A stretch of DNA of 64,000 nt from Lelliottia amnigena (GTDB taxonomy: Bacteria > Pseudomonadota > Gammaproteobacteria > Enterobacterales > Enterobacteriaceae), in contig LR134135.1 in NCBI GenBank assembly GCA_900635465.1, positions 4,092,001 through 4,156,000 of the forward strand, in the 5' to 3' direction. Below, one piece after another: positions 7,206-46,698 of this stretch. The notes beneath the pieces are model-generated. The model had not been told where the DNA came from and ran no database searches. It saw only the letters and a list, made by a program, of their open reading frames with translations. The stretch's first letter is position 1. The number at the start of each line of letters is the position of its first letter. Both the position numbers and the translations under genes were made by a program.

Positions 7206-8315
7206 TTATTTCGCGACGGTTGAGGAACCGTCGGCATGCCACTGGAAGACACCAAATTCAAATCCCTTCAGATCGCCTTTCTCATCCCAGTTCAGCGGCC
7301 CAATCACGGTATTCGCACCGTGAGCTTTTAAATCTTTGATTAAATCCAGCGGCGCTTTGCTGCCGGTGCGTTCCAGGGCGGTAGCCAGAGACTGCACGGC
7401 GGCATAGGTGATCCACACATACGGACCACTCGGATCTTTTTTCTGCGCATTGAGCGCGTCTACGATAGCTTTATTCGACGGTTCCTGGTCATAGCGTTTT
7501 GGCATCGTCACCAGCATGCCTTCGCCTGCATTCCCCGCAATATTAGACAGCGAGGCGTTACCCACCCCTTCCGGCCCCATAAACTGCGTTTTCAGACCGG
7601 TTGCCCGCGCCTGGCGCAGCATCTGGCCCATCTCCGGGTAATAACCGCCGTAGTAAACGAAGTCGATATTCTCTTTTTGCAGACGGGCCAGCAGCGCTGA
7701 GAAATCTTTCTCGCCCGCAGTGATACCGTCGAAGAAGACCACGTTAGCGCCGCCTTTTTTCAGGTTCTCTTGTACGGAACGCGCCAGGCCTTCGCCGTAT
7801 TGCTGTTTATCGTGAATGATCGCGATGCGCTGCGGTTTCACTTTTTCCAGAATGTATTTAGCCGCTGTCGGTCCCTGTGAAGAGTCCAGGCCGGCGGTAC
7901 GCATGATGTGCTGATAGCCACGCTGAGTCAGTTCCGGGTTGGTCGCACCTGGCGTTATCATCAGAATGCCTTCGTCTTCGTAGATGTCGGAAGCGGGCTG
8001 TGTGGAGGATGAGCAGAGGTGACCGATCACATACTGAATGCCATCGTTAACGATTTTGTTGGCCACGGCGACGGCTTGTTTAGGGTCACAGGCATCGTCG
8101 TATTCCACGCCGACCAGTTTGTCGCCTTTGATGCCGCCCTTGGCGTTGATGTCTTTGATTGCCTGACGCGCGCCGTTAAATTCCATATCACCCCACTGGG
8201 CAACCGGACCGGACATCGCACCCACCACGGCAATTTTAATCTCTTCCGCCATAGCTGCCTGCGAAATCGCCAGTGCAACCATTCCCGCGATAAATGCTTT
8301 CGCGTTCCTTTTCAT
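7206..8315 (-). CDS. livK: Leucine-specific periplasmic binding protein LivK
   Basis: Periplasmic leucine-binding protein for LivHMGF. Starting at 8315 the product has 369 residues, as in E. coli, and begins [18 protein letters not shown] with cleavage expected after AMA. The ligand-binding landmarks of the family are intact ([40 protein letters not shown] with the Cys pair). An open extension to 8375 would put about 20 residues in front of the signal peptide and is not used. It is about 80% identical by eye to LivJ encoded at 9.45-10.55 kb; the two are ancient paralogues. First gene of livKHMGF. Confidence 0.96.
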
Positions 8316-8738
8316 CTCTGAATCCCCATTCGTGATGTCGTGTATATATTTTGTTTTATTATGGTTAAAAAGCATTCTGTACTTTTAATGAACAACGCTA
8401 TTTTTACCAGTGCCTTTAATGGTTTAGCGCAGTTTTTTGCCAAAAACCAGACTAAAATCTCTATTTTTCAGGCGATTAAGCAAAGATAATATTCTGAAAT
8501 CAGACAGAGATAAACAAATAAAAGCGCAGTTTGCAGCATAAAATAACGGTACAAAGCGCCGAATAAATCACTACCCATTAGGTTAAAATTCTGCTTATTT
8601 TTCGATCCCTGCGTTTTATAGCTGCTCTTTTTGCTGCCAAAAAAGTAATCACCTGGAGAATGGATTTAAAAAGTGGAAGCCGCTGGTGAGATAAATTGAG
8701 TACACTGCCTTACTCTTTTTGATTTGGACAAGCAGCTA
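8316..8738. other. Divergent livK / panM promoter region
   Basis: This is 423 bases without a gene, AT-rich compared with its flanks, between the divergent livK and panM starts. It should hold the livK promoter and, in E. coli, leucine/Lrp-dependent control sites. I could not assign a specific operator with confidence. A GGGGATT stretch just before the livK ATG is its likely ribosome-binding site. Confidence 0.5.
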
Positions 8739-33256: not shown

Positions 33257-36200
33257 CTAGTCCCTGGAAGTGAATGTGGCATTCACCGAAGTTTTCCCTG
33301 CGGTGGTTGGTACATCGGAGTTTGTCACCTCTGCAACGAGCAGCAGTACGCCGAGAGTGTTTGAGAAAACATCAGAGGTTAAACTGCCATCAGCACCGGT
33401 TTTACCTTTAGAAGGATTAAAGGTTGTCGTGATACTGAGATCATTATCCCTCAGGCTCAGAGCAACGCCGGGCATCGGATCATTATTAACATCATAAGCA
33501 GTAACCTTAACAACATTTGGCGTTGAAGAGCCCAACCCACCATGTCCGTCAACTAACATCGTCATCGTTAGGTGATCAACGATGAAAGTGAAGGTGGTTT
33601 TTTGAACCTGCGGCATGGTATTTCCTACTCTTGCGCTCAGATTCACTGTCTCAGCAACAACATCGGTCAATGATACGATAGCTTTACCATTCGCATCTGA
33701 CTGGCTGGTCGTGGCTGACAAAGTGGCGTTGCCACCCACATTCCAGTCGACTGTACTGCCTGAGACAATATTGCCATTCGCATCCGTCACTGTCGCTGTG
33801 GCACGGTTTTGCGCTGTACCATTTGCAGTATGGTTATCATCATCAATAGTCAGGGACGAAACATGTGCAGTTGCGGTATTCGCCACAAAACTACTGGTTT
33901 TTGACTGGCCGTTGTCAGCGCCACCCGATTTTGCCGTCAGCGTCACCGTTTCCGCGTGCGTATCTGTAAACGACATCTCTGCCTGTCCGCTGGCATTCGT
34001 CGTACTGCTTACCGATGTCAGTCCGGCACTGCCCGTGATGCTCCAGGTTACAACCGTGTTCGCCAGAATATTATTTCCACTGTCCGTCACCGTTGCGGTT
34101 GCATGGTTCTGCGCCACACCGTCAGCCACACTACCATCTTTATCAATGGTCAATGCAGAGACATGTGCAGTGGCACCGTCTGCGATGAATGTCGTAGCCT
34201 GCGTTTTCTCCGCTGTACTGCCAACTCTTGCGCTCAGATTCACTGTCTCAGCAACAACATCGGTCAATGATACGATAGCTTTGCCATTCGCATCTGACTG
34301 GCTGGTCGTGGCTGACAAAGTGGCGCTGCCACCCACATTCCAGTCGACTGTACTGCCTGAGACAATATTGCCATTCGCATCCGTTACTGTCGCTGTGGCA
34401 CGGTTTTGCGCTGTACCATTTGCAGTATGGTTATCATCATCAATAGTCAGGGACGAGACATGTGCAGTTGCGGTATTCGCCACAAAACTACTGGTTTTTG
34501 ACTGGCCGTTGTCAGCGCCACCCGATTTTGCCGTCAGCGTCACCGTTTCCGCGTGCGTATCTGTAAACGTCATCTTTGCCTGTCCGCTGGCATTCGTCGT
34601 ACTGCTTACCGATGTCAGTCCGGCACTGCCCGTGATGCTCCAGGTTACAACCGTGTTCGCCAGTATGTTATTTCCACTGTCCGTCACCGTTGCGGTTGCA
34701 TGGTTCTGCGCCACACCGTCAGCCACACTACCATCTTTATCAATGGTCAATGCAGAGACATGTGCAGTGGCACCGTCTGCGATGAATGTGGCTACGGTGT
34801 GCTCCGATCGATTTCCTGCACTCGCCGTTACCGTAACATCTTCCGCCACGTTATCCGCGAGATTAAGGGTGGCAATTCCCTTACTATTCGTAACAGCAAC
34901 CTGAGGCGTCAGCATAGCGGCAGTGCTACTATTGAGACTCCAGTTTACACTCACGCCTTCCATCGAATGATTGTCAGCATCGGTGATGAGAGCCTGAGCG
35001 ATATTTGCGGTAGTTCCGTTTGCCGCTGCATTATTAGTCGACATAGAGACGGCAACATTATTGACAATCTGATCTGTAAAAACAGAATTAACCGACTCTT
35101 TTTTTCCTCCCGCACTTGCGCTTAGCTTTACCGTACCGGCCGTTGCGCTAGAAAAGTGAATAGTTGCATGGCCTTTGCTGTCAGTGCTGGTGTCGCTACT
35201 CACAATTTTAGCTCCGTTCCCAGTCGTCCAGATCACGGGGATTCCTGCTATTGGTTTTCCGCTTGTATCTGTGAGCGTTGCCAAACCCACATTCTGGTCG
35301 AGACCATCAGCTTTACTGTTATTTTTCGTCAACGAGAGATCTAGCGCTGCAACAGATTGGGTAAATGATGACGTGGTATGTCGAGTGATTGTTTCTGATG
35401 TCGCGCTAACGATAACCTGTTCCGCAGTTGTGTTGCTCAGATTAACGGAAGCATTGCCGTTAGCGTCTGTGATTCCCGTTGTCATATTGAGCTTCGCGGT
35501 TCCTGTCACGCTCCAGACATTCGAAGCATTTGCCACAGATTTACCATCAGAAGTAACCGCGTGGAGCGTCACTGTATTCGTCTTATCGCCATCGGCAGGA
35601 CTATTGTCCTTAATCGTCGTCAGCACCATATCAGCCAGAACTGCAGAAGTTTCTTTCTTTTTATATTGGAGAATTATTTCATTATTGCGATTAACAATAT
35701 CATTGCGACTGCCTGCGAGACTTCTCCGTAAAGCAACCTGATCAGGAGAGATTTGCGACTGCCATGACTGATCCAATGTATAATGAAGATTCAGGCTTAC
35801 TTTTGTTTCATCCAAAGAATCCTGACCACGTTTATAATCTAATGCAGCGGTAATTAATGGAATTGGCGTGTAATTTAATCCGACTGTGACGGCCGATGGG
35901 TTGCTCTGCAAATGATCTTTATCGAATAACGCCACCTTGTCGCCATAATATTCTTCATACATGGCTTTTAACCCTAGCTGTGGGCAAGCAGGAAAATAGT
36001 TTTCCATTCGAATATCAAACCCGTCGGCAGGTTTCTCATGGTAGTTATCAAAATCCCTTGAACTATGCCATTCGGTAGTACCAACATAAGTATTAGCTGA
36101 TAATTTTAAATAATCCGTCCAAGCTTCTGCGCCGAAACCAACGCGGCGATTTTTACCTGTGAAATCATTATCAAAAAATACATTTCCTCCGAACATCCAC

Positions 36201-36667
36201 TTCTGGGTATAAAATGTACGAACACCCACGCCAACATTTCCTGTCGTGCGACCATCGGGAGCACGCAACCCTATCTGGGCAAATAGAGTTGACTTTTAAT
36301 TTTCATAAACAGGCGTAAGAAAATCGAAAGAACTGTTATCCCAGTGTCCGTCATTATCAACATTCAGATTGATTTGCGCAGTACCGAAATAACTTAACCA
36401 TTCCTCAACGGTTGTGACTGCTGCACCAGTAGCCATACTAGTGGCCGTATTTTTAATTCCATTGATGCCGTTAGTTGCAGTGCTATCAGCAAATCTCTGA
36501 GCTTCTGAAGAAAAAGGGATAACTATATTAGTTTCTTCGATATTTCCGGCTCCAGCAAGCACACTTGGAGCAATTATTGGGTATAACTGCATTGCAATCA
36601 ATAACTTAGAAAAAAATCTACGTAGTTTACCCTTAGAATTCAGCCACAATGATTCCATTTTCGACAT
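33257..36667 (-). pseudogene. Invasin/intimin-like inverse autotransporter adhesin, interrupted by an in-frame TAA
   Basis: One reading frame of 1,136 codons contains a single TAA at 36296-36298, between PVYEN and KSTLFAQIGLRAPDGR. Before it are a signal sequence (RRFFSKLLIAMQLYPIIAPS) and the start of the inverse-autotransporter beta domain. After it the barrel continues (GFGAEAWTDYLKLSANTYVG, FDIRMENYFPACPQLGLKA, AVTVGLNYTPIPLITAALDY). Next come about eight Ig-like (Big_1) domains of about 100 residues, ending NATFTSRD. There is no C-type lectin tip and no clear LysM. The family inserts its barrel in the outer membrane and exports the Ig rod for adhesion. As sequenced, the protein stops at 124 residues. 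The start at 36667 follows GAGGATAGG; a frame to 36730 is open. Confidence 0.88.
33615..34808 (-). repeat. 597-bp tandem duplication within the invasin-like gene
   Basis: The segment 33615-34211 is repeated at 34212-34808 with an offset of 597 bases (199 codons, two Ig domains). Only a handful of differences are visible, for example EMSFTD versus KMTFTD and GGNATL versus GGSATL. The near identity, including silent positions, points to a recent duplication or gene conversion; such repeats allow rod length to change by recombination. Confidence 0.9.
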
Positions 36668-37052
36668 CCTATCCTCAACAAAAGTGAAATTTTTATTATG
36701 TTTACCACTACTAGCACTCATTAATCCCAATGAGTTAAAAATGATTATAATTAATAAAAAACATGAAAAATAGACTGTAATAAGTATTTTGCAAATATAA
36801 CGCTATCGACACTCATTAATAAATCAAAATAGTTTATCTCAACGAAATATAATATCAGAAAAACTTTCGAAAAAATAACATCCCATTAACACCGCTTCTT
36901 GTCCAGGCACTAACATAAGTGACTTAATTTAGCATCTTTAAATTTGGCTTTAGCCCATTTATTCGCACGGAATTATTTTAAATTACATTGGCTCACTTAA
37001 GAGCATTAATAACGAAAATTCATTTTAAAACCACTATAGAAGGAAATAACAG
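36668..37052. other. Divergent promoter region between the invasin-like gene and the Ig-like operon
   Basis: 385 very AT-rich bases between divergent genes. Several TA-rich -10-like sequences exist on both strands, but I cannot single out a promoter. AAGGAA at 37041-37046 is the ribosome site for the gene at 37053. The shared upstream region suggests joint control of the adhesin and the leftward-facing operon, and its AT content suggests H-NS silencing (inference). Confidence 0.5.
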
Positions 37053-38075
37053 ATGCTTTTCGAAGATAAAAACAGAGTTAGCGTTGTTCGCGTCTCACCT
37101 GTGGATGCAGTGCCTGGTGTAACAACTACCATCACACTTTCAGCTACAGTCGTTGATATCGATAATGTGCCAGTGTCAGGTGCCACCGTAACATGGCACA
37201 ACACGCTGGATGAAGTTGGGGTAAATGAAACATCAGATACAGACGCCTCTGGTGTAGCAATACTGGACGTTAAGCTCACTGACCTTACTGCGGGCCTCAG
37301 TGTTTTTCCTTTTATTGCTTATCTGGATTCAGACCCTTCGACTGGCGCTACAGGCACTATTCGCCTCGCCAGTACAGATAATCCCATCCCACAGATCAAT
37401 GACGGCGGTGATTTTAAAATCGACCAGTATGACATCGCAAGCGGTGTGACTATCACTATCCAGGCATATCCAGATGCTACCCGTGGCGATTTGGTGAATT
37501 TTTATTGGGATGATATTCACTCACTTGGGAAAACTATTGCGGATCCTGCAACAGATTTCCCGTGGGTCATTAATGCTAAGACTTCGCTCCCGCCAGAATG
37601 TCTGGTCAACGGTCAGTACTCACTCTACTACCAGTTTAGGGACAGCAATGGCAACTTCGGTGTTTCCATGCCAAGGAAGGAAACTGTAAATGGCAGCCAA
37701 CCAGCGCCAACTCTGTTGGCTCCTGATTTCCCTGAAGCCGACGGCAACGGCGGCTGGATTAATTCCATGCTGGCGCTGAATGGCACACCTGCCAGTGTGA
37801 CGTGGAAAAATATGCAAAAAGGTGATTTGGTAAATCTCACCTGGGTTGTTTATGACCAAAATGGCGTGCAGTTGCTACTGGACGATCAGTTGGCAGGTAC
37901 CGTCACCGATGAGCAGGTCACCGCGGGTAGTATGGATATTACTGTTCCATCTACTGATATCCCTCAGGGGATACAGAATGGTTCGGCCAAGGCCTGGTTC
38001 ACCATGACCCCAGCTAACGGTAGTGATTTGCAATCCTCAGCTGTGGCTAATGTCGGTATTGATACTAAAGCATAA
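37053..38075 (+). CDS. Ig-like domain protein without signal peptide (island gene A)
   Basis: 340-residue acidic beta-rich protein of unknown function. Residues 1-105 look like a Big_1-type Ig domain (VSVVRVSPVDAVPG, SGATVTWHNT, TDASGVAILDVKLT). Residues 110-220 and 225-340 are two copies of a ~115-residue module with the pattern PxFPEAxxN...GDLVNxxW...YxxYxF, also found four times in gene B. The N-terminus MLFEDKNRVSVVRVSPVD has no hydrophobic stretch, so Sec export is not predicted. AAGGAA 7 bases before the ATG supports this start. First of three same-strand genes; a hairpin separates it from gene B. Confidence 0.8.
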   Translation: MLFEDKNRVSVVRVSPVDAVPGVTTTITLSATVVDIDNVPVSGATVTWHNTLDEVGVNETSDTDASGVAILDVKLTDLTAGLSVFPFIAYLDSDPSTGATGTIRLASTDNPIPQINDGGDFKIDQYDIASGVTITIQAYPDATRGDLVNFYWDDIHSLGKTIADPATDFPWVINAKTSLPPECLVNGQYSLYYQFRDSNGNFGVSMPRKETVNGSQPAPTLLAPDFPEADGNGGWINSMLALNGTPASVTWKNMQKGDLVNLTWVVYDQNGVQLLLDDQLAGTVTDEQVTAGSMDITVPSTDIPQGIQNGSAKAWFTMTPANGSDLQSSAVANVGIDTKA

Positions 38076-38081
38076 CTCTCT

Positions 38082-38109
38082 TGCCCACATACTTAGCCGC
38101 ATGTGGGCA
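38082..38109 (+). terminator. Intercistronic hairpin between genes A and B
   Basis: tgcccacat...atgtgggca is a perfect 9-bp stem with a 10-base loop, 6 bases after the stop of gene A. There is no T run after it, so it is probably an attenuator or mRNA-stabilising element. A similar tgcccata...tatgggca pair follows gene C at 42497-42541. Confidence 0.5.
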
Positions 38110-38134
38110 CTTATCAAACTAAAACGTGACGCTT

Positions 38135-40207
38135 ATGAACACGACAAATGCAGGCATTATTTCTCTTTATCCCCCAATGCTGCCGCAAATGACAGCAGAC
38201 AATGTCATTAATGTCGCAGATCTGATTAACGATGGCGGTGTGATAGTTGTGATAAACGAGCCCCAAGATGCTTTACGTGGGGATTATCTGACTTTGTACT
38301 GGAATGGTACTGCCGCAAATACGCTTTATACAGGAACCAATACACCTTCAGACTCTTATCCCTGGACGACAATTATCCCCTCTAGCGCCGTGCCGGATGG
38401 GAGTTATCAGGTTTATTATACTCGAGTAGATCAAGCCGCCAATATTGCGTCATCACTCATGACTACCGCAATCGTGCGTCGCAGCGATACGGGCGATCTG
38501 CCGGCCCCAGATTTCCCTGAAGCTAACAATAATACGATTACAGCTGATGACATTTATGACGACAGCACACCCGTTCATATTCCTGTTTATTCAGGAATGA
38601 CATCTGGCGATCAGGTTACGATTTATTGGGCGGGTACAGATCATTACAACCAACCAGTCCCAGCCAGCGTTACTAGTCTTTCTTATATTGTTAAGGCAAA
38701 CGATCTGATCAACGGATTTTCGGTGAATATTCTCGCACCCTATGTTTCCGTCATTGGCGTCGGAACAGCCTCATCCTGGTATTCAGTCCTCCCTGTGGGT
38801 GGCGTGGCCAAAAACTCCGACACAGCCGTAGTACAGATTGATATCACTCAGATCTCATTGATTGCCCCTATTTTCACTGAAGGTAATGACGGTTGGATCG
38901 ATACCAACGAAGCCGTTAACGGTACGCCAATTGCTGTACCCGCTTATTCGGGGATCTCTGTCGGAGATGTTGTCACTGTCAGTTGGCAAGGCTATACCGG
39001 GAATAACCCCGTGGCTGGCAGCAGCGGTAGTGCATCACCACATGCTGTATCTGGCTCTGAAATCATCACCGGATTTCAAGTCACATTACCTTACGCAAAT
39101 ATGGCCCCCATTGGGGTTGGGACCCTACAGGCCTGGTATCAAGTCGACTATTCCGGTAGCAGTCAGCAAGGTATCTCGGCAGCAGCCCAGGTAAATTTGG
39201 ATATTCTCCATCCTGGAATGCTGCCACCCCCCACTTTCCCTGCTGCTGCTGGGGATAACACGATCACCTCCGCAGAAGTTACCGCAGGCAACGGAACAGA
39301 AATGGATGTGACGTATAGCGGTATGACCACTGGAGATATTGTCACCGCCTTCTGGTTAGGCTATGTGACCTCGCCAGGAACACCTGTTCCCGGCACTCAG
39401 TGGACACAAACTCGAACGTTGACAGCTCAGGAAGCCCAATTATCACTCGCTGTCTTTCATATTCCCGCCAGCGCTATCACACCTGTGGGCAAAGGCTACG
39501 GAGAAGGTAAATATCAAGTTATGTTTAATAATCAAGGTGGTACAGCATCTTCAGTCGCGGCAGATGTTAAACTCGATTTATCATCTGTAGCAGAATTATC
39601 GATGAGTTGTAGCACAGGCGCCCCAATATTCGATCCAACGGTGATGGTTCGCCCCCTCAATACTGTCGTGATGTCTGGCCCTCCGGGTGCGGACGTTGAG
39701 TTATCTCTTGCCACAGGTTCTAGTGCCTGGTTTAACCCTAATGGAACCCAAACCCTACACCTACGTTTAGACAGTAATGGTCGAGCTTCAGCAGATGTGT
39801 ATTCCTTAGCTGTAGGTAACGTTCTGGTAAGTGCTTACGTAATTACAAATCCTATTCTCAGCGCCGCAGCCAGTATGACTTTCACGAATTGGATTAATGG
39901 AAATGGCGATTTACAGTTTTATGGATTCACTACCGGCGCAAGTGCAGATGGAATAATGCCGTGCTGTGTATGGTTGAAAACGTCATCCTCCATTACCGCG
40001 ACACAGGCCAGACTGACGTTGAATACCGGCGACGCTATTATCACTCAATCTGGGATCAAAATTGCCTTTATTGATATTAGTACCAGCCATGCGGGTGGTT
40101 TCGATGTTATCGACACAGTTGTGGAAACTGTCGCTTTTACGCTTTCTTTGCCTGATGTATCGAATGCCAACGTAACCGGCTCCTTATCATTTATTACCCC
40201 CCTTTAA
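38135..40207 (+). CDS. Large repeat protein of the same family (island gene B)
   Basis: 690 residues from the ATG at 38135 (a GTG at 38126 is also possible; neither has a good ribosome site). Residues 1-485 consist of four ~115-residue modules, each with an opening like LPAPDFPEANNNTITADDI, a core YSGMTSGDQVTIYWAG and an ending like VVQIDIT. The modules diverge but keep their spacing. Residues about 490-690 form Ig/Big-like domains (MSGPPGADVELSLATGSSAW). No signal peptide, membrane segment or catalytic motif was seen, and only a few cysteines are present. It looks like a secreted or surface structural protein, but the route is unknown. Confidence 0.78.
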   Translation: MNTTNAGIISLYPPMLPQMTADNVINVADLINDGGVIVVINEPQDALRGDYLTLYWNGTAANTLYTGTNTPSDSYPWTTIIPSSAVPDGSYQVYYTRVDQAANIASSLMTTAIVRRSDTGDLPAPDFPEANNNTITADDIYDDSTPVHIPVYSGMTSGDQVTIYWAGTDHYNQPVPASVTSLSYIVKANDLINGFSVNILAPYVSVIGVGTASSWYSVLPVGGVAKNSDTAVVQIDITQISLIAPIFTEGNDGWIDTNEAVNGTPIAVPAYSGISVGDVVTVSWQGYTGNNPVAGSSGSASPHAVSGSEIITGFQVTLPYANMAPIGVGTLQAWYQVDYSGSSQQGISAAAQVNLDILHPGMLPPPTFPAAAGDNTITSAEVTAGNGTEMDVTYSGMTTGDIVTAFWLGYVTSPGTPVPGTQWTQTRTLTAQEAQLSLAVFHIPASAITPVGKGYGEGKYQVMFNNQGGTASSVAADVKLDLSSVAELSMSCSTGAPIFDPTVMVRPLNTVVMSGPPGADVELSLATGSSAWFNPNGTQTLHLRLDSNGRASADVYSLAVGNVLVSAYVITNPILSAAASMTFTNWINGNGDLQFYGFTTGASADGIMPCCVWLKTSSSITATQARLTLNTGDAIITQSGIKIAFIDISTSHAGGFDVIDTVVETVAFTLSLPDVSNANVTGSLSFITPL

Positions 40208-40230
40208 TTCAAAATATTATGGATAATATT

Positions 40231-42438
40231 ATGTCATCAATTGATTCATCAGGCATGAGCCTGCTTTTTTATACCGGTGCGAACTATAGTGGTAACTACA
40301 CCAGCGTGGCACACGGTGTGATGGGTACGCTTACCAACACATCTATCGGTTGGGCCTATAACTCTGTTGCAATGTCCGATATGCACGCCGCCGTTCTGAG
40401 TCAGGTCAACATTAACGACAGCAGTATTAATTATCAGCAGCATATTGAAGATGTTATTACCGCGAATATTTCCAGCCTGCCGGCACTCTATCCGTCAGCC
40501 CAACTTCCGTTGCAGTACCTGGGGCTAGACCCAGCAGTTGTCGCCGTTGTCTGGCTGGAAATGGATGATAACCAGGCCTCACCGAACGCGCTGGCATCCA
40601 CTTCTCAGGTTGGTGGTAGTACAACAAATGTCACCACACTTACCCTTCCTGGGCACCGCGGCATGTTGAGCTTTGTCCCTCTGGCCGAAGGTAGCTCTGT
40701 AGTGGCAAACTGCCGCCTCGGGGATTACAACACGGCCAGCGGAACAGTTAACTGGGCCGGAAACGGCACGGTAGTGCTGGAGTATCTGGGTGGAATGATC
40801 AAGCTCATCAGCACTTCAGGCTTCCCGACGGGCTGGTCGTTTGGCGCACCGCAGATGAATTCGGACGGTAGCTGGAAAGTGGTACTGAACGGTGGTTCAA
40901 CCTCTGCAGATTTTATCAGCGATCTAACCTCTGACAAAACCAGCATTGCGGATAATGGTGCCGATATCGCCACCCTTACGGCGACAGTGAAGGACAGCAT
41001 CAATGGTCTGGTGAAAAGCGGTGTAACGGTAAACTGGAGCAGTACACTGGGCAATCTAAACACCCTGTCATCCGTAACGGATAGCAACGGCCAGGCTAAC
41101 GTTCAGCTAAGCGACAATGACGCACCAGGCACAGCCACCGTAACAGCGGCCATCAGCGGCAACAGCAAATCGGTCAACGTAATTGTCTCAGCAGGCCCGG
41201 CTGGGTTGTCGTTATATAGCGACTTCAACTGGCAGGGAAGCAGTATGGTGTTGACCGAACAGCAGAGCACTTTATTGCGTGATCCGTTGTATTCCTGGAA
41301 CTGGAAGTCGGTAAAAACCGGCAGTGAACGACTGATGGCACACTCTTTACTCACGTTGGATACCTCCACTTTTGACTTCCGCACCTACCGGGACAGCTAT
41401 ATCATTACGGATGTGTCAGACCTGACGGCCGACTTCCCGGCGATACTCTCTGCCCCGACGGTGCAAGGCACCACGCTGGGTGAAAACGATGTGGTCGTGC
41501 GCGTACTGCTGCTCCCGGATGACAAAACTCAGAAAGTGGTGGCCTGCGCCACCCAGACCTGGCCTCAGGTTATGAATACTGCGAGTGTGGCGAACGGCGT
41601 GTCGTCAGTCGAGGGAATACTGGTAGTACTTAACAAAACCAAAGGTCTTGTCACCGTGCCGCTACAGTTGGGGGTAATGGATGATAACGGTCTGGTGGCA
41701 TGGCAATACACTACCACTTTGGTTGCCAGCTGGGATGAATCCCGTCAAATACCTTTAGTCGTACTGGGCAACGATGCCCCCACAGACTGGATACTGTACC
41801 CGGCTCAGCCAACAGCGAATGCGGGAGAGTTTAAAACGGCGCTTTCGGGTGTTCTAATTCAAAATAAATTTACCATGTACTGCGTGACGGATGCTGTTAC
41901 CACGATGGTTCAGTCGAATGCAGTCAACCCAATTGGTTTTCACGGTACGCCGGGAGCAGAAATTACCGTTTCTGTAGACGGTCCGGCTTCCGTGGTCACC
42001 ACAAATCCGGTCATTCTGGATGATCTGGGCTATGGTCGCGTCGATATTTCCAGTTCCCAGGCAGTAACCGTTGTTGTAACAGCCGTCGGCTCAGGATATA
42101 CCGTTGTGGACAGCATGAAATTTGTGAGTGCTTATACCGTATCAAGTTTTGGCAATTATCAACTCACGCAGAATGCTCCTGCAGACGGCAGAACACCGAA
42201 TATGGTATATGGCTATGATACTGCGAGATACCCTATGTACGTCGATCAGCATGCAGTATATGACACAGGCACAAATTCCAAGATACCATCGACAACCACT
42301 TTTGCTCTTGAAGTGACTGATACGTTTTCTGAAGATGTCAATGTGCATGTTTACAATAATGCGTATCCACTTGGAAAAATGAATTTTGTGGAATTCACTA
42401 CACCAGAAATGGAAAATGATTACATTCACAAAGAATGA
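40231..42438 (+). CDS. betagamma-crystallin-like / Ig-like protein (island gene C)
   Basis: 735 residues from the ATG at 40231, which has GGA 7 bases upstream; an ATG at 40219 is in frame but lacks a ribosome site. Residues about 9-55 (SLLFYTGANYSGNYTSVAHG) and about 333-385 (LSLYSDFNWQGSSMVLTEQQ) resemble Greek-key betagamma-crystallin motifs (Y/F-x5-Y/F/W-x-G). Between them, about 240-330, is a Big_1-like Ig domain (SDKTSIADNGADIATLTATV). A C-terminal domain (HGTPGAEITVSVDG) is related to the end of gene B. No signal peptide. Function is unknown; betagamma-crystallins often bind Ca2+ and stabilise extracellular proteins. Confidence 0.75.
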   Translation: MSSIDSSGMSLLFYTGANYSGNYTSVAHGVMGTLTNTSIGWAYNSVAMSDMHAAVLSQVNINDSSINYQQHIEDVITANISSLPALYPSAQLPLQYLGLDPAVVAVVWLEMDDNQASPNALASTSQVGGSTTNVTTLTLPGHRGMLSFVPLAEGSSVVANCRLGDYNTASGTVNWAGNGTVVLEYLGGMIKLISTSGFPTGWSFGAPQMNSDGSWKVVLNGGSTSADFISDLTSDKTSIADNGADIATLTATVKDSINGLVKSGVTVNWSSTLGNLNTLSSVTDSNGQANVQLSDNDAPGTATVTAAISGNSKSVNVIVSAGPAGLSLYSDFNWQGSSMVLTEQQSTLLRDPLYSWNWKSVKTGSERLMAHSLLTLDTSTFDFRTYRDSYIITDVSDLTADFPAILSAPTVQGTTLGENDVVVRVLLLPDDKTQKVVACATQTWPQVMNTASVANGVSSVEGILVVLNKTKGLVTVPLQLGVMDDNGLVAWQYTTTLVASWDESRQIPLVVLGNDAPTDWILYPAQPTANAGEFKTALSGVLIQNKFTMYCVTDAVTTMVQSNAVNPIGFHGTPGAEITVSVDGPASVVTTNPVILDDLGYGRVDISSSQAVTVVVTAVGSGYTVVDSMKFVSAYTVSSFGNYQLTQNAPADGRTPNMVYGYDTARYPMYVDQHAVYDTGTNSKIPSTTTFALEVTDTFSEDVNVHVYNNAYPLGKMNFVEFTTPEMENDYIHKE

Positions 42439-42840
42439 TTTAATCAGCAAAGAACTATATACGAAGATTTACTATAATAATAATTAGATATCCCCATGCC
42501 CATAGACAACTTTTCTAGATGGGAGAGTACGCTTATGGGCACTTTAGAATGGGTTTATTATAATTCGGATTTCAAATACAAATAAAATTTATCCAATAAT
42601 ATGCAATTGCACAATTATTAAACTTGCTTTTTATTTATTTGACAGAATAAGGACTAACGAGACAACTTCAACAAATGGGGTTCGTCCTTGTTGAAAAGAG
42701 CTCTTTAGAGAGTGAATTTTAAACTGAAATCATTAGCTCACATTCTTTTGTAAGAGTCTGACAGCAACAAGATGTAAAAATATATCAGAAATAATCACCC
42801 TATAAACAATTTAATAAAGTGATACTAAAAGGAATTATCA
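42439..42840. other. AT-rich spacer between gene C and the holin-like gene
   Basis: 402 bases without a gene. It contains the inverted repeat tgcccata...tatgggca (42497-42541) and a second one, ttcaacaa...ttgttgaa (42667-42695). Neither has a T run. AAAGGAATTATCA directly before 42841 is the ribosome site of the next gene. Confidence 0.55.
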
Positions 42841-43194
42841 ATGAGTGGTAAAATAACCCTAGGCACTTTGCTTTCAGCATTAATTTCAGAGCCTGTCGAA
42901 GTTATAAAAATATTTTTAATACTTACTTTAGGCGAGTTGGGGCGATGGTTGTATGGTGGGGGCCGCATAAGAGAAATGGCGGGGGATTTAATTATCAGCC
43001 TACTTCTTTTTTACTTAATTCGCCCCCATATTATTCAACTTTCTGAAATGATAGGGACGAAAGTTTCCTCCGGCGCTATTGCTATCTGCATTGCATTAAT
43101 TGGTTCACATGGAATAAGCCAGATTCTAATTTATGCGATTAAGAAAAGAACTGGGGTTGATATAGCAAAATTTCTATTTCGAAATAAACATTAA
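42841..43194 (+). CDS. Small holin-like membrane protein (LydA / holin superfamily III resemblance)
   Basis: 117 residues with three predicted helices at about 21-37, 49-66 and 77-100, a Gly/Arg-rich loop (GRWLYGGGRIREMAGDL) between the first two and a basic tail (KKRTGVDIAKFLFRNKH). Size, topology and the pattern resemble phage LydA-type holins, which form lesions in the inner membrane and let an endolysin reach the wall. The family call is by eye and needs a profile search. It follows gene C on the same strand and has its own good ribosome site. The lysozyme gene 2.8 kb downstream is its natural partner. Confidence 0.65.
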   Translation: MSGKITLGTLLSALISEPVEVIKIFLILTLGELGRWLYGGGRIREMAGDLIISLLLFYLIRPHIIQLSEMIGTKVSSGAIAICIALIGSHGISQILIYAIKKRTGVDIAKFLFRNKH

Positions 43195-44392
43195 TTTTAG
43201 TTATCCAAATTAGATTCTTACAACGATAACTATCTGTACAAACAATTAGTTATAAGCACCCATTATATTTGGAGAATAATATTTATTATTAATACGAAAG
43301 CAGATAAAAACACAATATCAACAATGGCATAGAGTGACCAGACTGAAGATTTTGCGTGTAATGTGATAGACAGGTTAAAAATCCAACAAGGCTTAAATTT
43401 CTAGCTTGTGAAAGTCTCTACACCAGCTAATTTAATATTAATTAGATAGTAAATAACAACTAGAATTAACTATCCTTCGTCAAAAGAAAGTTTCCGTAAC
43501 AAAAAATATTTTTCAGATCAGAGCCTTAAGTCCCTATAATCACACCGGTCGACTCAGGGTTATAGGATACCGTAATAATATTTTCAGCAACATTATTGAG
43601 TCAAAAACTTGGCATTTTTTTATTGTTTGCATTAATATGAAATCAGTTAATAGTTATCAGTAACACTTTTAATCTCTTAAGCAGCTGCTCACGATACGTC
43701 AATGGATCCCTACAGGAAATACTAACAAATTTGGCGCATTGCACAATTCCCCTTCAAAAAATTCATTTTTTATGAAGAAAGCATTAAAATTTGAGCATTA
43801 TTGCCGTCAAGAGTAGCGCAGGAACCAGGAGAGGTAATTGCGCGCTTATGCATTTTACCGCAACAATCAAAATGGCACGTTCAAAAATTAAACACTCTCT
43901 AAAAAATCAAATGATAATTACATTTAAACTAATTTGAGAAAAATATTGTGGGAATTCACTAAAAAAATAAAATATTGCAGTTACTCTATAGAGTTATATA
44001 AACAACTAACCACACACAACTCAATTATTTCAAAAGAATCATATTCAAAAAAAACCTATGTATAAGATAACTGGATGAATATACTTAAAAAAAACAAATC
44101 TGACAACATAAAAATAAACCGACGCTTTTCATTTAATGCAGCGCTAATAGCATTGTGCAATTATTGGTAAACTACTATTAGTGATACCCCCCATAACATG
44201 GGCCCGCCAAAAGTAAAATGGCGTAACCATATGAAAGGTAGCATTATTTTTTTAATTGCAAATGGTAATCTATATTAGTTAGATATTGAGTGAAGCTTGA
44301 CAAAATTTTTCACTCCTTTCCCTCCTTTTTTTGTTCTTAATGACTTATACTCGTTTACTCTTATAATGGACGAATCATAAATACCTTTTAAA
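43195..44392. other. 1.2-kb AT-rich region without a recognisable gene
   Basis: I found no convincing coding sequence; the longest plausible reading is a 31-codon frame from 44074 (MNILKKNKSDNIKINRRFSF). There is an inverted repeat cctataa...ttatagg (about 43533-43568). The base composition is far more AT-rich than the backbone. It could hold decayed genes, an sRNA or binding sites for silencers; none can be named. Confidence 0.5.
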
Positions 44393-44692
44393 ATGAACGA
44401 AATCCTGTCATTGCAAAATTTGCCACTTTTGTTAACCGTATGCAAAATCATTACCAAGAACACAGTACAAGAACTGTTTATAGAAACCGTTACTCACGAT
44501 GAAATGGTTTATCTTCAAAGAGTTAATGAAATTTGTTCGGAAGAGTTTAGATTTAAGATCGATGAATGCCGAATGTCAGTAGTTATTACTAAACCAATGC
44601 AGTCTCTGATGTGTATCCTTCCTAAATACACACCAGAGTTTGAAGCTCTGCATCCAATTATTAAAGAGTTTGGATTAAAATACGAACTATAA
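44393..44692 (+). CDS. Small protein of unknown function next to the LysR gene
   Basis: 99 residues, MNEILSLQNLPLLLTVCKII onward, mixed charge, no membrane segment and no recognised motif. Codon use and length are compatible with a real gene, but there is no clear ribosome site. It is convergent with the LysR-type gene, with stops only 4 bases apart. It could be a partner or a target of that regulator; nothing in the sequence decides. Confidence 0.45.
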   Translation: MNEILSLQNLPLLLTVCKIITKNTVQELFIETVTHDEMVYLQRVNEICSEEFRFKIDECRMSVVITKPMQSLMCILPKYTPEFEALHPIIKEFGLKYEL

Positions 44693-44696
44693 TTTT

Positions 44697-45575
44697 TTAT
44701 TTTGTAATTGACATCAACATATCGGTTATACTTGATATGATTGTTTTATTTTTTTGTCTTTTGTTCACATAAAGACCAGTCTTAATTCGTACATTTGGGA
44801 CTTTAATTTTACATGTCCCTGGCGGAGAAAAGTAGGAGCTTAAACATTCAGGAAGAAGCATCATACCTTCCCCCCGCACAGACAGAAATAAGCATCGATG
44901 TAGTATCTCTATCTGTTTCTCTAATATCAATGTATGGCGCAAAATCCCGTATACTTTTTGCTATAATCCCTTTTAGCTCTGGTGAAAAAACATCCTTCCT
45001 GATTAACAACTTAATATCCTTTATACTTTCAAAATCTTTTAAAGATTTTTCATGAATGCCCTCAGGCATTAATAAAAAAAGCCCTTCCTCACTTACTTTA
45101 TGAAAAACAAAATTTCTGTCAGAGCAATTTCGCGAAAAGAGATTATACCTACATCAGGATTTGTTTTTAGCGACTGAATTTCGTTACAAGAGACTGAAAC
45201 TCGCCTACAACTTATTGAACAATTAGACTTACTTAACAATGAAGATATGTGCTGGTAGATAACAAATGGAACGCTAATATCACAAAGTAATTCGAACCTG
45301 GTAAGGTTTGCCGAAATGCCAAACTCGCTTTCTATAGCACAAAGAAGATCATAAACGGGTTTAATTTTTTCATATAAGTTAAATGCCAGTTCAGTTGGCT
45401 CTAGGTGGTTGTATTTTCTAACAAATAACTTCCCACCAGCCTTTTCTTCCAACTCATACATAACTCGAGTTAAAGGTGAGCGAGTAACACATAACTGGTC
45501 AGCAGCATGATTAATGCACCGAGTTTCGAAACAAACTATGAAATATTTTAATTTTTTCGACATTAGCAAAGCCAT
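44697..45575 (-). CDS. LysR-type transcriptional regulator, split by two compensating frameshifts
   Basis: The N-terminal winged helix reads KLKYFIVCFETRCINHAADQ and LCVTRSPLTRVMYELEEKAG, typical of LysR regulators. The effector-binding half continues in two other frames: FVFHKVSEEGLFLLMPEGI up to SMLISVCAG, then GMMLLPECLSSYFSPPG. Restoring one base near 45119-45123 (REIAL-DRNF) and removing one G from the six-base run at 44870-44875 gives one 292-residue protein. The start at 45575 follows GGAG at 5 bases. It is divergent from the lysozyme gene. It is either a decayed regulator or two sequence errors; the length after repair (a normal LysR length) speaks for the latter or a very recent loss. 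Confidence 0.75.
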
Positions 45576-46033
45576 GCATACTCCGTTTAAATTTTTCAAG
45601 TTTTAGCATGAGAATAAAATATATGCATAATTAGATCATACCATTAAGCCGGATGTGTATGACGCTTTCATATATCTTTCAAAATCCCCTTGCAATCAAA
45701 ATACAGTATACGTGTACTCTACTTGCGCAAAAATGACTTATCAAATGAATAATAATGGCACATTTTTTATGTTGCTTAAATTCTTCGTTTTTGCTCTCAC
45801 TCAACTGTGTTAACCGAGATTTTTCATAGCAAACATTTTTCCATGCACATTTCTGTGCGAAAAATAGACAATATAGAAATAAAAATGCGGCACACTATAT
45901 ATTCTCATAGAACTTCTTTTTAATAAAACAGATTAAGCACGTTTAAGAAATAAATAATTAAAATAAAACCATTTTGTTACTAACGCAGCTATGCCTTTAC
46001 AAGATATTAAACACAAGTGAGGAGATAAAACTG
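45576..46033. other. Divergent promoter region between LysR gene and lysozyme gene
   Basis: 458 AT-rich bases between divergently transcribed genes, the classic place for LysR-type control of the neighbour. I see no clear T-N11-A dyad that I would defend. GAGGAG about 9 bases before the lysozyme ATG is its ribosome site. A 26-codon hydrophobic frame at 45733-45813 lacks a ribosome site and was not called. Confidence 0.45.
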
Positions 46034-46507
46034 ATGAATCAGAAAAATGAAATTATTGCGTTATTACGCTATGAAGAAGGTGTCCGGTATACACCTTACA
46101 TTGACAGTCTTGGCTATCCGACCAGTGGGGTGGGCTTTAAACTTGGGCCACATGGCGCTTCGCTAAAAAATTATACATTTACGCTTAACGATAAGACCAT
46201 TGACGCCTGGCTGAATAACAACATTGAACGTGTGCAAGCTGCCATGATTCAAAACCATGAGATTGCTGGTGCACTTTCACATTGTAGTCAACCCCGGAAG
46301 GATATTCTCACATCGATGGCATATCAGATGGGTGTCGGCGGACTTGGAGGATTCCACCAAATGCTTAAAATGATTACACAAGAAAACTGGGATGGTGCAG
46401 CGTTACAAATGTTGAATAGCGTTTGGGCACGGCAGACACCGGACAGAGCCAGACGCCACGCTGAAGTAATGAAATCTGGAGAATGGCAACCCACATATTT
46501 TGTATGA
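46034..46507 (+). CDS. T4-type lysozyme / endolysin (GH24 family)
   Basis: 157-residue muramidase-like protein. The N-terminal stretch YEEGVRYTPYIDSLGYPTSG aligns with T4 lysozyme, giving the catalytic triad E15, D24 and T30 (T4: E11, D20, T26). The C-terminal half has the helical DILTSMAYQMGVGGLGGFHQ and WARQTPDRARRHAEVM segments of the family. There is no signal peptide or SAR helix, so it would need a holin to reach peptidoglycan. It starts at 46034 after a GAGGAG site; the open frame to 45974 is not supported. No spanin genes or other phage genes lie nearby. It may be a prophage relic or a secretion endolysin. Confidence 0.85.
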   Translation: MNQKNEIIALLRYEEGVRYTPYIDSLGYPTSGVGFKLGPHGASLKNYTFTLNDKTIDAWLNNNIERVQAAMIQNHEIAGALSHCSQPRKDILTSMAYQMGVGGLGGFHQMLKMITQENWDGAALQMLNSVWARQTPDRARRHAEVMKSGEWQPTYFV

Positions 46508-46698
46508 TTTAATTAACCCACATGGCTATGTGGCGCAACAAATAACGGGCGGTACCATTTATGAATACCAAATAACGGTATAAATTATTGTTGTTAATAT
46601 TTACTTCATTCGAGATCCCCAAAACAATTAGTGAGCGACATTGCGCAATCAGGCAATATGGCCTGTTAGTTAGAACGCTGCTGTATCTCGGGTTCATA

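What the first reader, a model, noticed from the sequence alone, without database searches (positions are those of the whole stretch)
37053..46507. Candidate holin/endolysin-coupled export cassette for large leaderless Ig/betagamma-crystallin proteins
Seen: three same-strand genes for 340-, 690- and 735-residue beta-rich proteins without signal peptides, followed by a three-helix holin-like protein (42841-43194) and a T4-type lysozyme with an intact E-D-T triad (46034-46507), with a LysR-type regulator divergent from the lysozyme. No capsid, tail, integrase or spanin genes are nearby. Known: type 10 secretion uses holin plus endolysin to release large proteins (ChiWXYZ in Serratia, TcdE, TtsA). 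Inference: the cassette may release these adhesin- or matrix-like proteins. Alternative: holin and lysozyme are prophage leftovers.
Basis: partly seen in the sequence, partly recalled or inferred. Interest (0 to 1): 0.82.

Follow-up and report, generated by a model that had tools for sequence, protein, structure and literature searches.

The report
Lysis-coupled release of adhesin partner proteins
Beside a surface adhesin, this bacterium carries large proteins without an export tag together with cell-bursting genes of the kind some bacteria use to release proteins; related bacteria repeat the combination with different bursting genes, but here the adhesin and the regulator genes look damaged.

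Summary
The genes are real. Three leaderless Ig-type genes (37053-42438) precede a holin-like gene (42841-43194), a LysR gene (44697-45599) and a T4-type lysozyme (46034-46507).

Prophage leftovers are unlikely. The holin had no match in 50,697 phage records, and its nearest relatives lie beside the same LysR type. Six of 17 other holin clusters share an exact longest-contig length with a lysozyme cluster. Lysis genes occur in 5 of the 17 IAT/Ig loci, with different holins and endolysins. A LysR profile from such loci found an M15 endolysin near 8 of 20 new LysR genes. One relative couples holin and LysR to a 1488-residue glycosidase without visible leader.

I read this as a type-10-secretion-like cassette releasing partners of an IAT. 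Against it: 12 of 17 loci show no local lysis genes, no spanin was seen, the lysozyme type also occurs in prophage-like settings, and here LysR is decayed and the IAT has an in-frame stop. Secretion is untested.

The parts
33257..36730 (-). inverse autotransporter (invasin/intimin type) with Big_1 stalk; frame interrupted by TAA at 36296-36298
   Evidence: IAT_beta in both pieces, eight Big_1 stretches; two ORFs of one frame; 68% identical over 436 residues to the IAT of L132
37053..38075 (+). 340-aa leaderless Ig-type protein
   Evidence: Big_1 1e-6, below Pfam's cut-off; leaderless on a crude scale
38126..40207 (+). 693-aa leaderless repeat protein; its family recurs beside IATs
   Evidence: family in 15 of 198 genomes at E 1e-3 and, by profile, 25 of 392 at E 1e-8; 17 of 21 strong Ig stretches have an IAT
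40219..42438 (+). 739-aa leaderless protein with an intimin-like Ig domain at about 229-326
42841..43194 (+). holin-like membrane protein, 117 aa
   Evidence: PHROG126 weak alone, 10 of 12 family members; 17 other clusters at 55-73% identity
44393..44692 (+). 99-aa protein of unknown function, convergent with LysR
   Evidence: tblastn match 40% over 42 residues, E 5e-6, just beyond the LysR gene of L210
44697..45599 (-). LysR-type regulator, pseudogene (7 in-frame stops)
   Evidence: N part 74% identical to the intact LysR of L132; one clade with other lysis-linked LysRs
46034..46507 (+). T4-type lysozyme (endolysin), 157 aa
   Evidence: PF00959 3.9e-9; aligned to T4 lysozyme; clusters share contig lengths with holin clusters

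Best explanation
This is a holin/endolysin (type-10-secretion-like) release module for leaderless Ig-type proteins that act as soluble partners of a surface inverse autotransporter. Proposed working: a LysR regulator switches the module on, probably in a minority of cells. The Ig proteins fold in the cytoplasm because they lack a Sec signal. The holin opens the inner membrane, the T4-type lysozyme cuts the wall, and the cell lets the Ig proteins out. The adhesin reaches the surface separately by the Sec/Bam route, and the released proteins bind its Ig stalk on the same or sister cells, as I recall for the Zir proteins. Shown: gene content; missing leaders on a crude scale; recurrence of IAT with Ig genes; lysis genes in 5 of 17 such loci; linkage of this holin type to this LysR type, and of holin to lysozyme by shared contig lengths. 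Inferred: release, regulation, docking, subpopulation. In this genome LysR is decayed and the IAT interrupted, so the local copy may no longer work.
For: IAT in 17 of 21 strong Ig stretches, lysis genes in 5 of those 17, with non-homologous holins and endolysins; endolysins in 3 of 13 groups besides the window against about 1.4% per 20 kb (P about 7e-4, indicative). 33 of 35 Ig ORFs without, 15 of 16 IATs with, an N-terminal hydrophobic core. Holin family without phage, plasmid or E. coli match; IAT, holin and LysR side by side in L132 and L133; holin and LysR with an M15 endolysin and a 1488-aa glycosidase in L134. Holin and lysozyme share six exact contig lengths. LysR clade 100/99 and M15 endolysin near 8 of 20 new LysR genes.
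Against: 12 of 17 IAT/Ig loci show no lysis genes in the fetched stretch. No convincing spanin-like lipoprotein ORF in 42400-46600. Holin and lysozyme here are 2.8 kb apart with a decayed regulator between. The close lysozyme clade also occurs in prophage-like settings. The four weaker holin matches have no match to this LysR nearby. 12 of 20 new LysR genes have no M15 endolysin within 4.5 kb. No experiment.
Confidence: 0.6

Rival explanations
1. The lysis genes are a genuine LysR-linked lysis or release module, but it serves other cargo or programmed lysis (DNA release, giant Rhs/Tc-like proteins elsewhere); its place beside the Ig genes is incidental, as genomic islands collect both.
For: Some LysR-holin-endolysin cassettes have an ordinary gene as neighbour, such as a chemotaxis receptor (L218) or ribonucleotide reductase (L229), others an Rhs-repeat giant (L223). 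12 of 17 IAT/Ig loci show no lysis genes. The lysozyme type lies beside genes that look Tc/Rhs-like in L181-L184 (by eye).
Against: Lysis genes inside IAT/Ig clusters arose with at least three unrelated endolysins, and in L061 and L040 the holin ORF starts 58 and 93 bases after an Ig gene on the same strand. The LysR type occurs in 8 of 11 Ig-positive and 12 of 279 other genomes (with a sampling caveat).
Confidence: 0.2
2. Holin and lysozyme are prophage leftovers that happen to lie beside an adhesin island.
For: The lysozyme clade occurs in phage-like contigs at 64-68% identity and in prophage-like settings of G356 (L178, L179). Prophages lie near some relatives (L132, L133).
Against: The holin had no match in 50,697 phage records and in L132 and L133 sits between IAT and LysR, not in the prophage part. 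Six holin clusters share contigs with lysozyme clusters. No close lysozyme relative in the 39 other genomes of the genus searched (only weak matches, 26-36% identity, in 4).
Confidence: 0.12
3. The Ig proteins leave through the inverse autotransporter itself, as ZirS does through ZirT, and the lysis genes are irrelevant.
For: IAT is the commonest neighbour; ZirT/ZirS is a described IAT plus secreted partner pathway (PMC2270342, passages).
Against: ZirS needs a cleaved Sec signal, whereas 33 of 35 Ig ORFs show no N-terminal hydrophobic core on the scale used.
Confidence: 0.08

Closest known systems
Type 10 secretion: Serratia marcescens ChiWXYZ with LysR-type ChiR, Salmonella chitinase operon, Yersinia entomophaga YenLC (PMC9527704, PMC10109510, PMC10847048, PMC13284979; passages only)
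   Same: Holin and wall hydrolase genes outside a phage, large cargo gene close by, LysR-type regulator as in Serratia
   Different: Cargo are Ig-type proteins beside an inverse autotransporter; no spanin seen here; regulator decayed in this genome; secretion not shown
ZirTSU of Salmonella (PMC2270342 and PMC6714894, passages)
   Same: Inverse autotransporter with separate secreted partner proteins; Ig-like domains
   Different: ZirS has a cleaved Sec signal and lies 26 bp downstream of zirT; here the partners lack a visible leader, are divergent from the IAT, and lysis genes follow
Lysis cassettes inside Tc toxin loci (PMC10847048, passages)
   Same: The window lysozyme type lies beside genes that look Tc/Rhs-like in L181-L184 (by eye), with a PHROG198 holin in L184
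   Different: No such giant gene among the ORFs examined in 33257-46507
T4 lysozyme / phage GH24 endolysins
   Same: Fold family and catalytic residues
   Different: At most 55% identical to annotated phage records; 57-72% identical relatives in bacterial records

Membership tests
Type 10 secretion system | holin gene and peptidoglycan hydrolase gene together outside a phage | tested here: met
   Both present; six shared contig lengths elsewhere; holin not in phage records. The lysozyme type alone does occur in prophage-like settings
Type 10 secretion system | spanin genes (present in the Serratia and Yersinia cassettes) | tested here: inconclusive
   No convincing lipobox ORF in 42400-46600; Rz present in L112. 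The passages on the Salmonella chitinase operon name only a holin and a hydrolase
Type 10 secretion system | cargo gene in close vicinity | tested here: met
   Ig genes directly upstream on the same strand; vicinity only, not proof of cargo
Type 10 secretion system | dedicated regulator | tested here: inconclusive
   LysR of a lysis-linked clade, but a pseudogene here
Type 10 secretion system | release of cargo depends on holin and hydrolase | not testable with these tools
   needs mutants
ZirTSU pathway | inverse autotransporter present | tested here: met
   interrupted frame
ZirTSU pathway | partner carries a Sec signal | tested here: not met
   crude hydropathy scale; contrast with ZirS
Inverse autotransporter | N-terminal IAT beta-barrel followed by Ig passenger | tested here: met
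   in two pieces
Inverse autotransporter | one open reading frame | tested here: not met
   in-frame TAA at 36296-36298
Prophage remnant | phage structural or integration genes beside the lysis genes | tested here: inconclusive
   None recognised among the ORFs scanned; not every neighbouring ORF was scanned
betagamma-crystallin | crystallin domain in the 739-aa protein | tested here: inconclusive
   No sequence match; model match to 5z6d for 368-548 only; residues 1-62 under pLDDT 50

The most novel reading that the evidence does not exclude
A lysis-driven shared-adhesin system: LysR-switched cells burst through a holin and an interchangeable endolysin to give away leaderless Ig proteins that dock on inverse autotransporters of surviving kin; holin and endolysin were replaced repeatedly in evolution while the LysR switch and the cargo logic stayed.
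Probability: 0.35. Interest if true: 0.82.

Novelty: new variant of a known kind. Interest (0 to 1): 0.64.

Why it matters
Type 10 secretion is described for chitinases and toxins (passages). If it also releases adhesin partners, cell lysis becomes a route for building surface or matrix structures, and a set of unnamed leaderless Ig proteins of Enterobacteriaceae gets an exit route. It would also give a marker, one LysR subfamily, that helps to find lysis cassettes whatever their holin or endolysin (8 of 20 new genes).

Tried and rejected
Local prophage block: not favoured, see rivals. One operon from the Ig genes to the lysozyme: not supported; promoter-like sites 33 against 28.5 expected, terminator-like 5 against 8.7. 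Naming the host: no tool named the genome; it is listed with family f1, and yhiN-pitA-uspB is 79.1% identical to E. coli. Ig693 in phages: no match in 50,697 records; in E. coli genomes: no match; in IMG/VR: none of 13 candidate stretches confirmed; in plasmids: 9 of 72,556 records. The Ig739 cassette protein has no full-length match in the other 39 relatives.

Dropped or judged by eye. One search was given 39 of the stretches I held; near-duplicates (L055, L056, L058-L060, L110, L114) and short loci were left out. The amidase match in L038, L039 and L092 was not counted as a lysis gene; I take it for the housekeeping amidase AmiD from recalled gene order. Prophage-like, Tc/Rhs-like, spv-like and Salmonella-like are my readings of translations, not scans (an Rhs-repeat match was scanned for L211 and L223 only). 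The likeness of the L132 holin to one named Cronobacter sakazakii is by eye. APP as crystallin-like, the T4 triad and the Zir docking model are recalled.

Limits of counts. Of the 7 genomes with a holin match the three best have the LysR neighbour, the four others (L050, L137, L138, L139) have no match to the window's LysR, IAT or Ig proteins at E 1e-4. Only 120 of 263 lysozyme clusters were listed, and the shared contigs could not be fetched. The 20 new LysR places exclude G138 and the window copy; two lie at contig starts (L210, L220), two in spv-like loci (L226, L227), and in L225 the lysozyme is on the same contig but about 25 kb away. Three of the eight positives are one genus, and their M15 genes had already appeared. 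The tree had only six outgroups, those at hand. For the co-occurrence test I assumed that G156 and G260 were among the 290 genomes, as genomes without a match are not all listed; G329 and G426 are Ig-positive too and were left out because I could not tell. The Ig-positive cut-off was E below 1e-20. The P is indicative: I first noticed lysis genes by reading gene lists, M15_4 and amidase families were not in the background, and the Pantoea plasmid is not one of the 25 genomes. My notebook says 6 stops in LysR and 14 of 15 IATs; the right figures are 7 and 15 of 16.

Papers. Only passages of PMC2270342, PMC10109510, PMC9527704, PMC10847048, PMC13284979, PMC6714894 and PMC10778856 were seen; all others only as search listings. 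I found no paper that joins inverse autotransporters with type 10 secretion or endolysins: searches (0 papers; 2 papers, co-mentions by their listing; 2 papers, both on type 10 release; 165 papers, 15 listed; PMC10778856 sets T10SS aside). The library lacks most subscription journals.

Full report

What was missed. Immediately left and divergent lies an inverse autotransporter (33257-36730) whose frame is interrupted by one TAA at 36296-36298. The LysR gene is a pseudogene with seven in-frame stops. GC falls from about 0.55 in most of the window to 0.32-0.51 in 2-kb windows between 35 and 46 kb, as expected of an acquired island.

The Ig genes keep company with the adhesin. The 693-aa family was found in 15 of 198 genomes (E 1e-3) and, by profile, in 25 of 392 (E 1e-8), in 9 of 72,556 plasmid records, and not in phages or E. 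coli. I tabulated 39 stretches. Of 21 with a strong Ig match (E at most 1e-20), 17 also hold an inverse autotransporter. In L040, L061 and L111 it is divergent as here; in L042 it is on the same strand. On a crude hydropathy scale 33 of 35 Ig ORFs lack an N-terminal hydrophobic core, while 15 of 16 IATs with their own N terminus have one. The two Ig exceptions are the 332-aa ORF of L040 and the 923-aa ORF of L046, whose starts are uncertain.

Lysis genes recur in some of these loci. Besides the window, four of the 17 carry them: L040 (Franconibacter pulveris: PHROG198 holin, a small membrane protein, M15_3 endolysin), L061 (Lelliottia: PHROG198 holin and a small membrane protein, no endolysin seen), L042 (an Enterobacterales MAG: GH24 lysozyme, no intact holin seen) and L112 (Pantoea ananatis plasmid: holin, amidase, lysozyme, Rz spanin). 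In L061 and L040 the holin ORF begins 58 and 93 bases after an Ig gene. The other twelve show none. Grouped by genus or plasmid, endolysins occur in 3 of 13 groups apart from the window. PF00959 and PF08291 gave 86 matches in 25 genomes, about 1.4% per 20 kb, so 3 or more of 13 has P about 7e-4. I first noticed the lysis genes by reading gene lists, so this P is only indicative.

The holin does not look like a phage leftover. It has no match in phages, plasmids or E. coli DNA. Its family search gave 17 other clusters at 55-73% identity, some named Enterobacter sp. 22452, Citrobacter and Cronobacter. Seven of 392 genomes have a match; the three best (window, G356, G424) have a related LysR gene next to it, the four weaker ones do not, and one of those four lies in what looks like a prophage. 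Two viral-collection contigs show IAT, holin and an intact LysR gene side by side, with phage genes only beyond LysR. That LysR is 74% identical to the window's N-terminal part. L134 (G356) joins holin and LysR to an M15 endolysin, a weakly CBM-like protein and a 1488-aa protein with alpha-fucosidase, glucoamylase and F5/8C domains and no visible leader, an arrangement like the chitinase release cassettes.

Holin and lysozyme are probably a pair. Six of 17 other holin clusters have the same longest-contig length, to the base, as a lysozyme cluster: 1179, 1972, 6184, 19585, 270895 (Citrobacter amalonaticus in both) and 457817 (Enterobacter sp. 22452 in both). On a 1179-base contig the two genes must be neighbours. 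Eleven clusters showed no such coincidence; only 120 of 263 lysozyme rows were listed, and the contigs could not be fetched. The lysozyme clade itself is shared: in 392 genomes the nine closest places, in eight genomes, include the window, two prophage-like settings (L178, L179), four Tc/Rhs-like islands (L181-L184), a phage-remnant-like setting (L185) and a contig end (L180) (by eye); phage-like contigs of the viral collection carry it at 64-68%.

One LysR subfamily marks such cassettes. The six lysis-linked LysRs form one clade (100/99) against six outgroups at hand. A profile of five of them, searched in 290 genomes, gave 22 places at E at most 1e-35; 20 were new. Eight of these 20, in six genera, have an M15-type endolysin within 4.5 kb (L213, L214, L215, L217, L218, L222, L223, L229); the other 12 do not. 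Holins were confirmed at L213, L217, L218, L223 and L229, endolysins by PHROG at L213 and L222 and by Pfam at the places of L214, L215 and L217; the other M15 genes rest on tblastn. L223 has an Rhs-repeat giant close by, L218 and L229 ordinary genes. The three Pseudescherichia genomes have their IAT/Ig locus without lysis genes but a LysR-M15 cassette elsewhere. Across genomes the LysR type is present in 8 of 11 Ig-positive and 12 of 279 other genomes (P about 2e-8; by genus 6 of 9 against 8 of 145, P about 1e-5), with the sampling caveat under Tried and rejected.

Mechanism. Passages describe type 10 systems as holin plus hydrolase near large cargo, lytic in Yersinia entomophaga and Serratia (PMC10847048), judged non-lytic in Salmonella (PMC10109510), with a LysR-type ChiR in Serratia (PMC13284979). 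In Serratia the chitinases themselves cross the inner membrane by Sec (PMC9527704). ZirT is an inverse autotransporter that translocates a Sec-exported partner (PMC2270342). The best fit here is a type-10-like exit for leaderless partners of an inverse autotransporter. Exit, docking and regulation are inferred. With LysR decayed and the IAT interrupted (or misread by the assembly, which I could not check), the window copy may be a relic; the gene order of relatives carries the argument.

Verdict. I call it a new variant of type 10 secretion in gene arrangement, not a tested member.

Noticed in passing
44393-44692: A 99-aa protein of unknown function ends 5 bases from the LysR gene end; a relative (40% over 42 residues) lies in the same convergent place in L210.
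   Followed up: partly
L211:6889-7164, L212:7484-7759, L213:8858-9130, L216:7322-7594, L218:7275-7565: A different conserved small protein of about 90 aa (54-91% identical) is convergent with the same LysR subfamily in five loci.
   Followed up: partly
L112:8668-10795; L045:6075-8064; L096:5834-7938: Glycan-modifying genes (in L112 PHROG families incl. methyltransferase and sialyltransferase; alike by eye in L045 and L096) lie beside the Ig genes; the Ig proteins may be glycosylated.
   Followed up: no
L112:15849-17645: A lipoxygenase-family gene lies between the Ig genes and the lysozyme of the Pantoea ananatis plasmid; possible extra cargo.
   Followed up: no
L040:4416-5030 and 7687-8367: Two IprA-like regulators lie inside the Franconibacter cluster; similar genes by eye beside the IAT in L038, L039, L042 and L092.
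   Followed up: partly
L108:8632-14083 (G000:C1:4344000-4363999): A second inverse autotransporter in the same genome.
   Followed up: no
L224:7302-8165 (G000:C1:1743313-1744158): A second LysR of the same subfamily, without stops, in the same genome; no lysis gene matched within 4.5 kb.
   Followed up: partly
L040:11832-14198: The Ig739-type partner carries RCC1-like repeats (PF13540 5.5e-19); several relatives list the same domain.
   Followed up: no
L050:7297-9511 and L221:4903-6346: Repetitive translations that look like CRISPR arrays (by eye).
   Followed up: no
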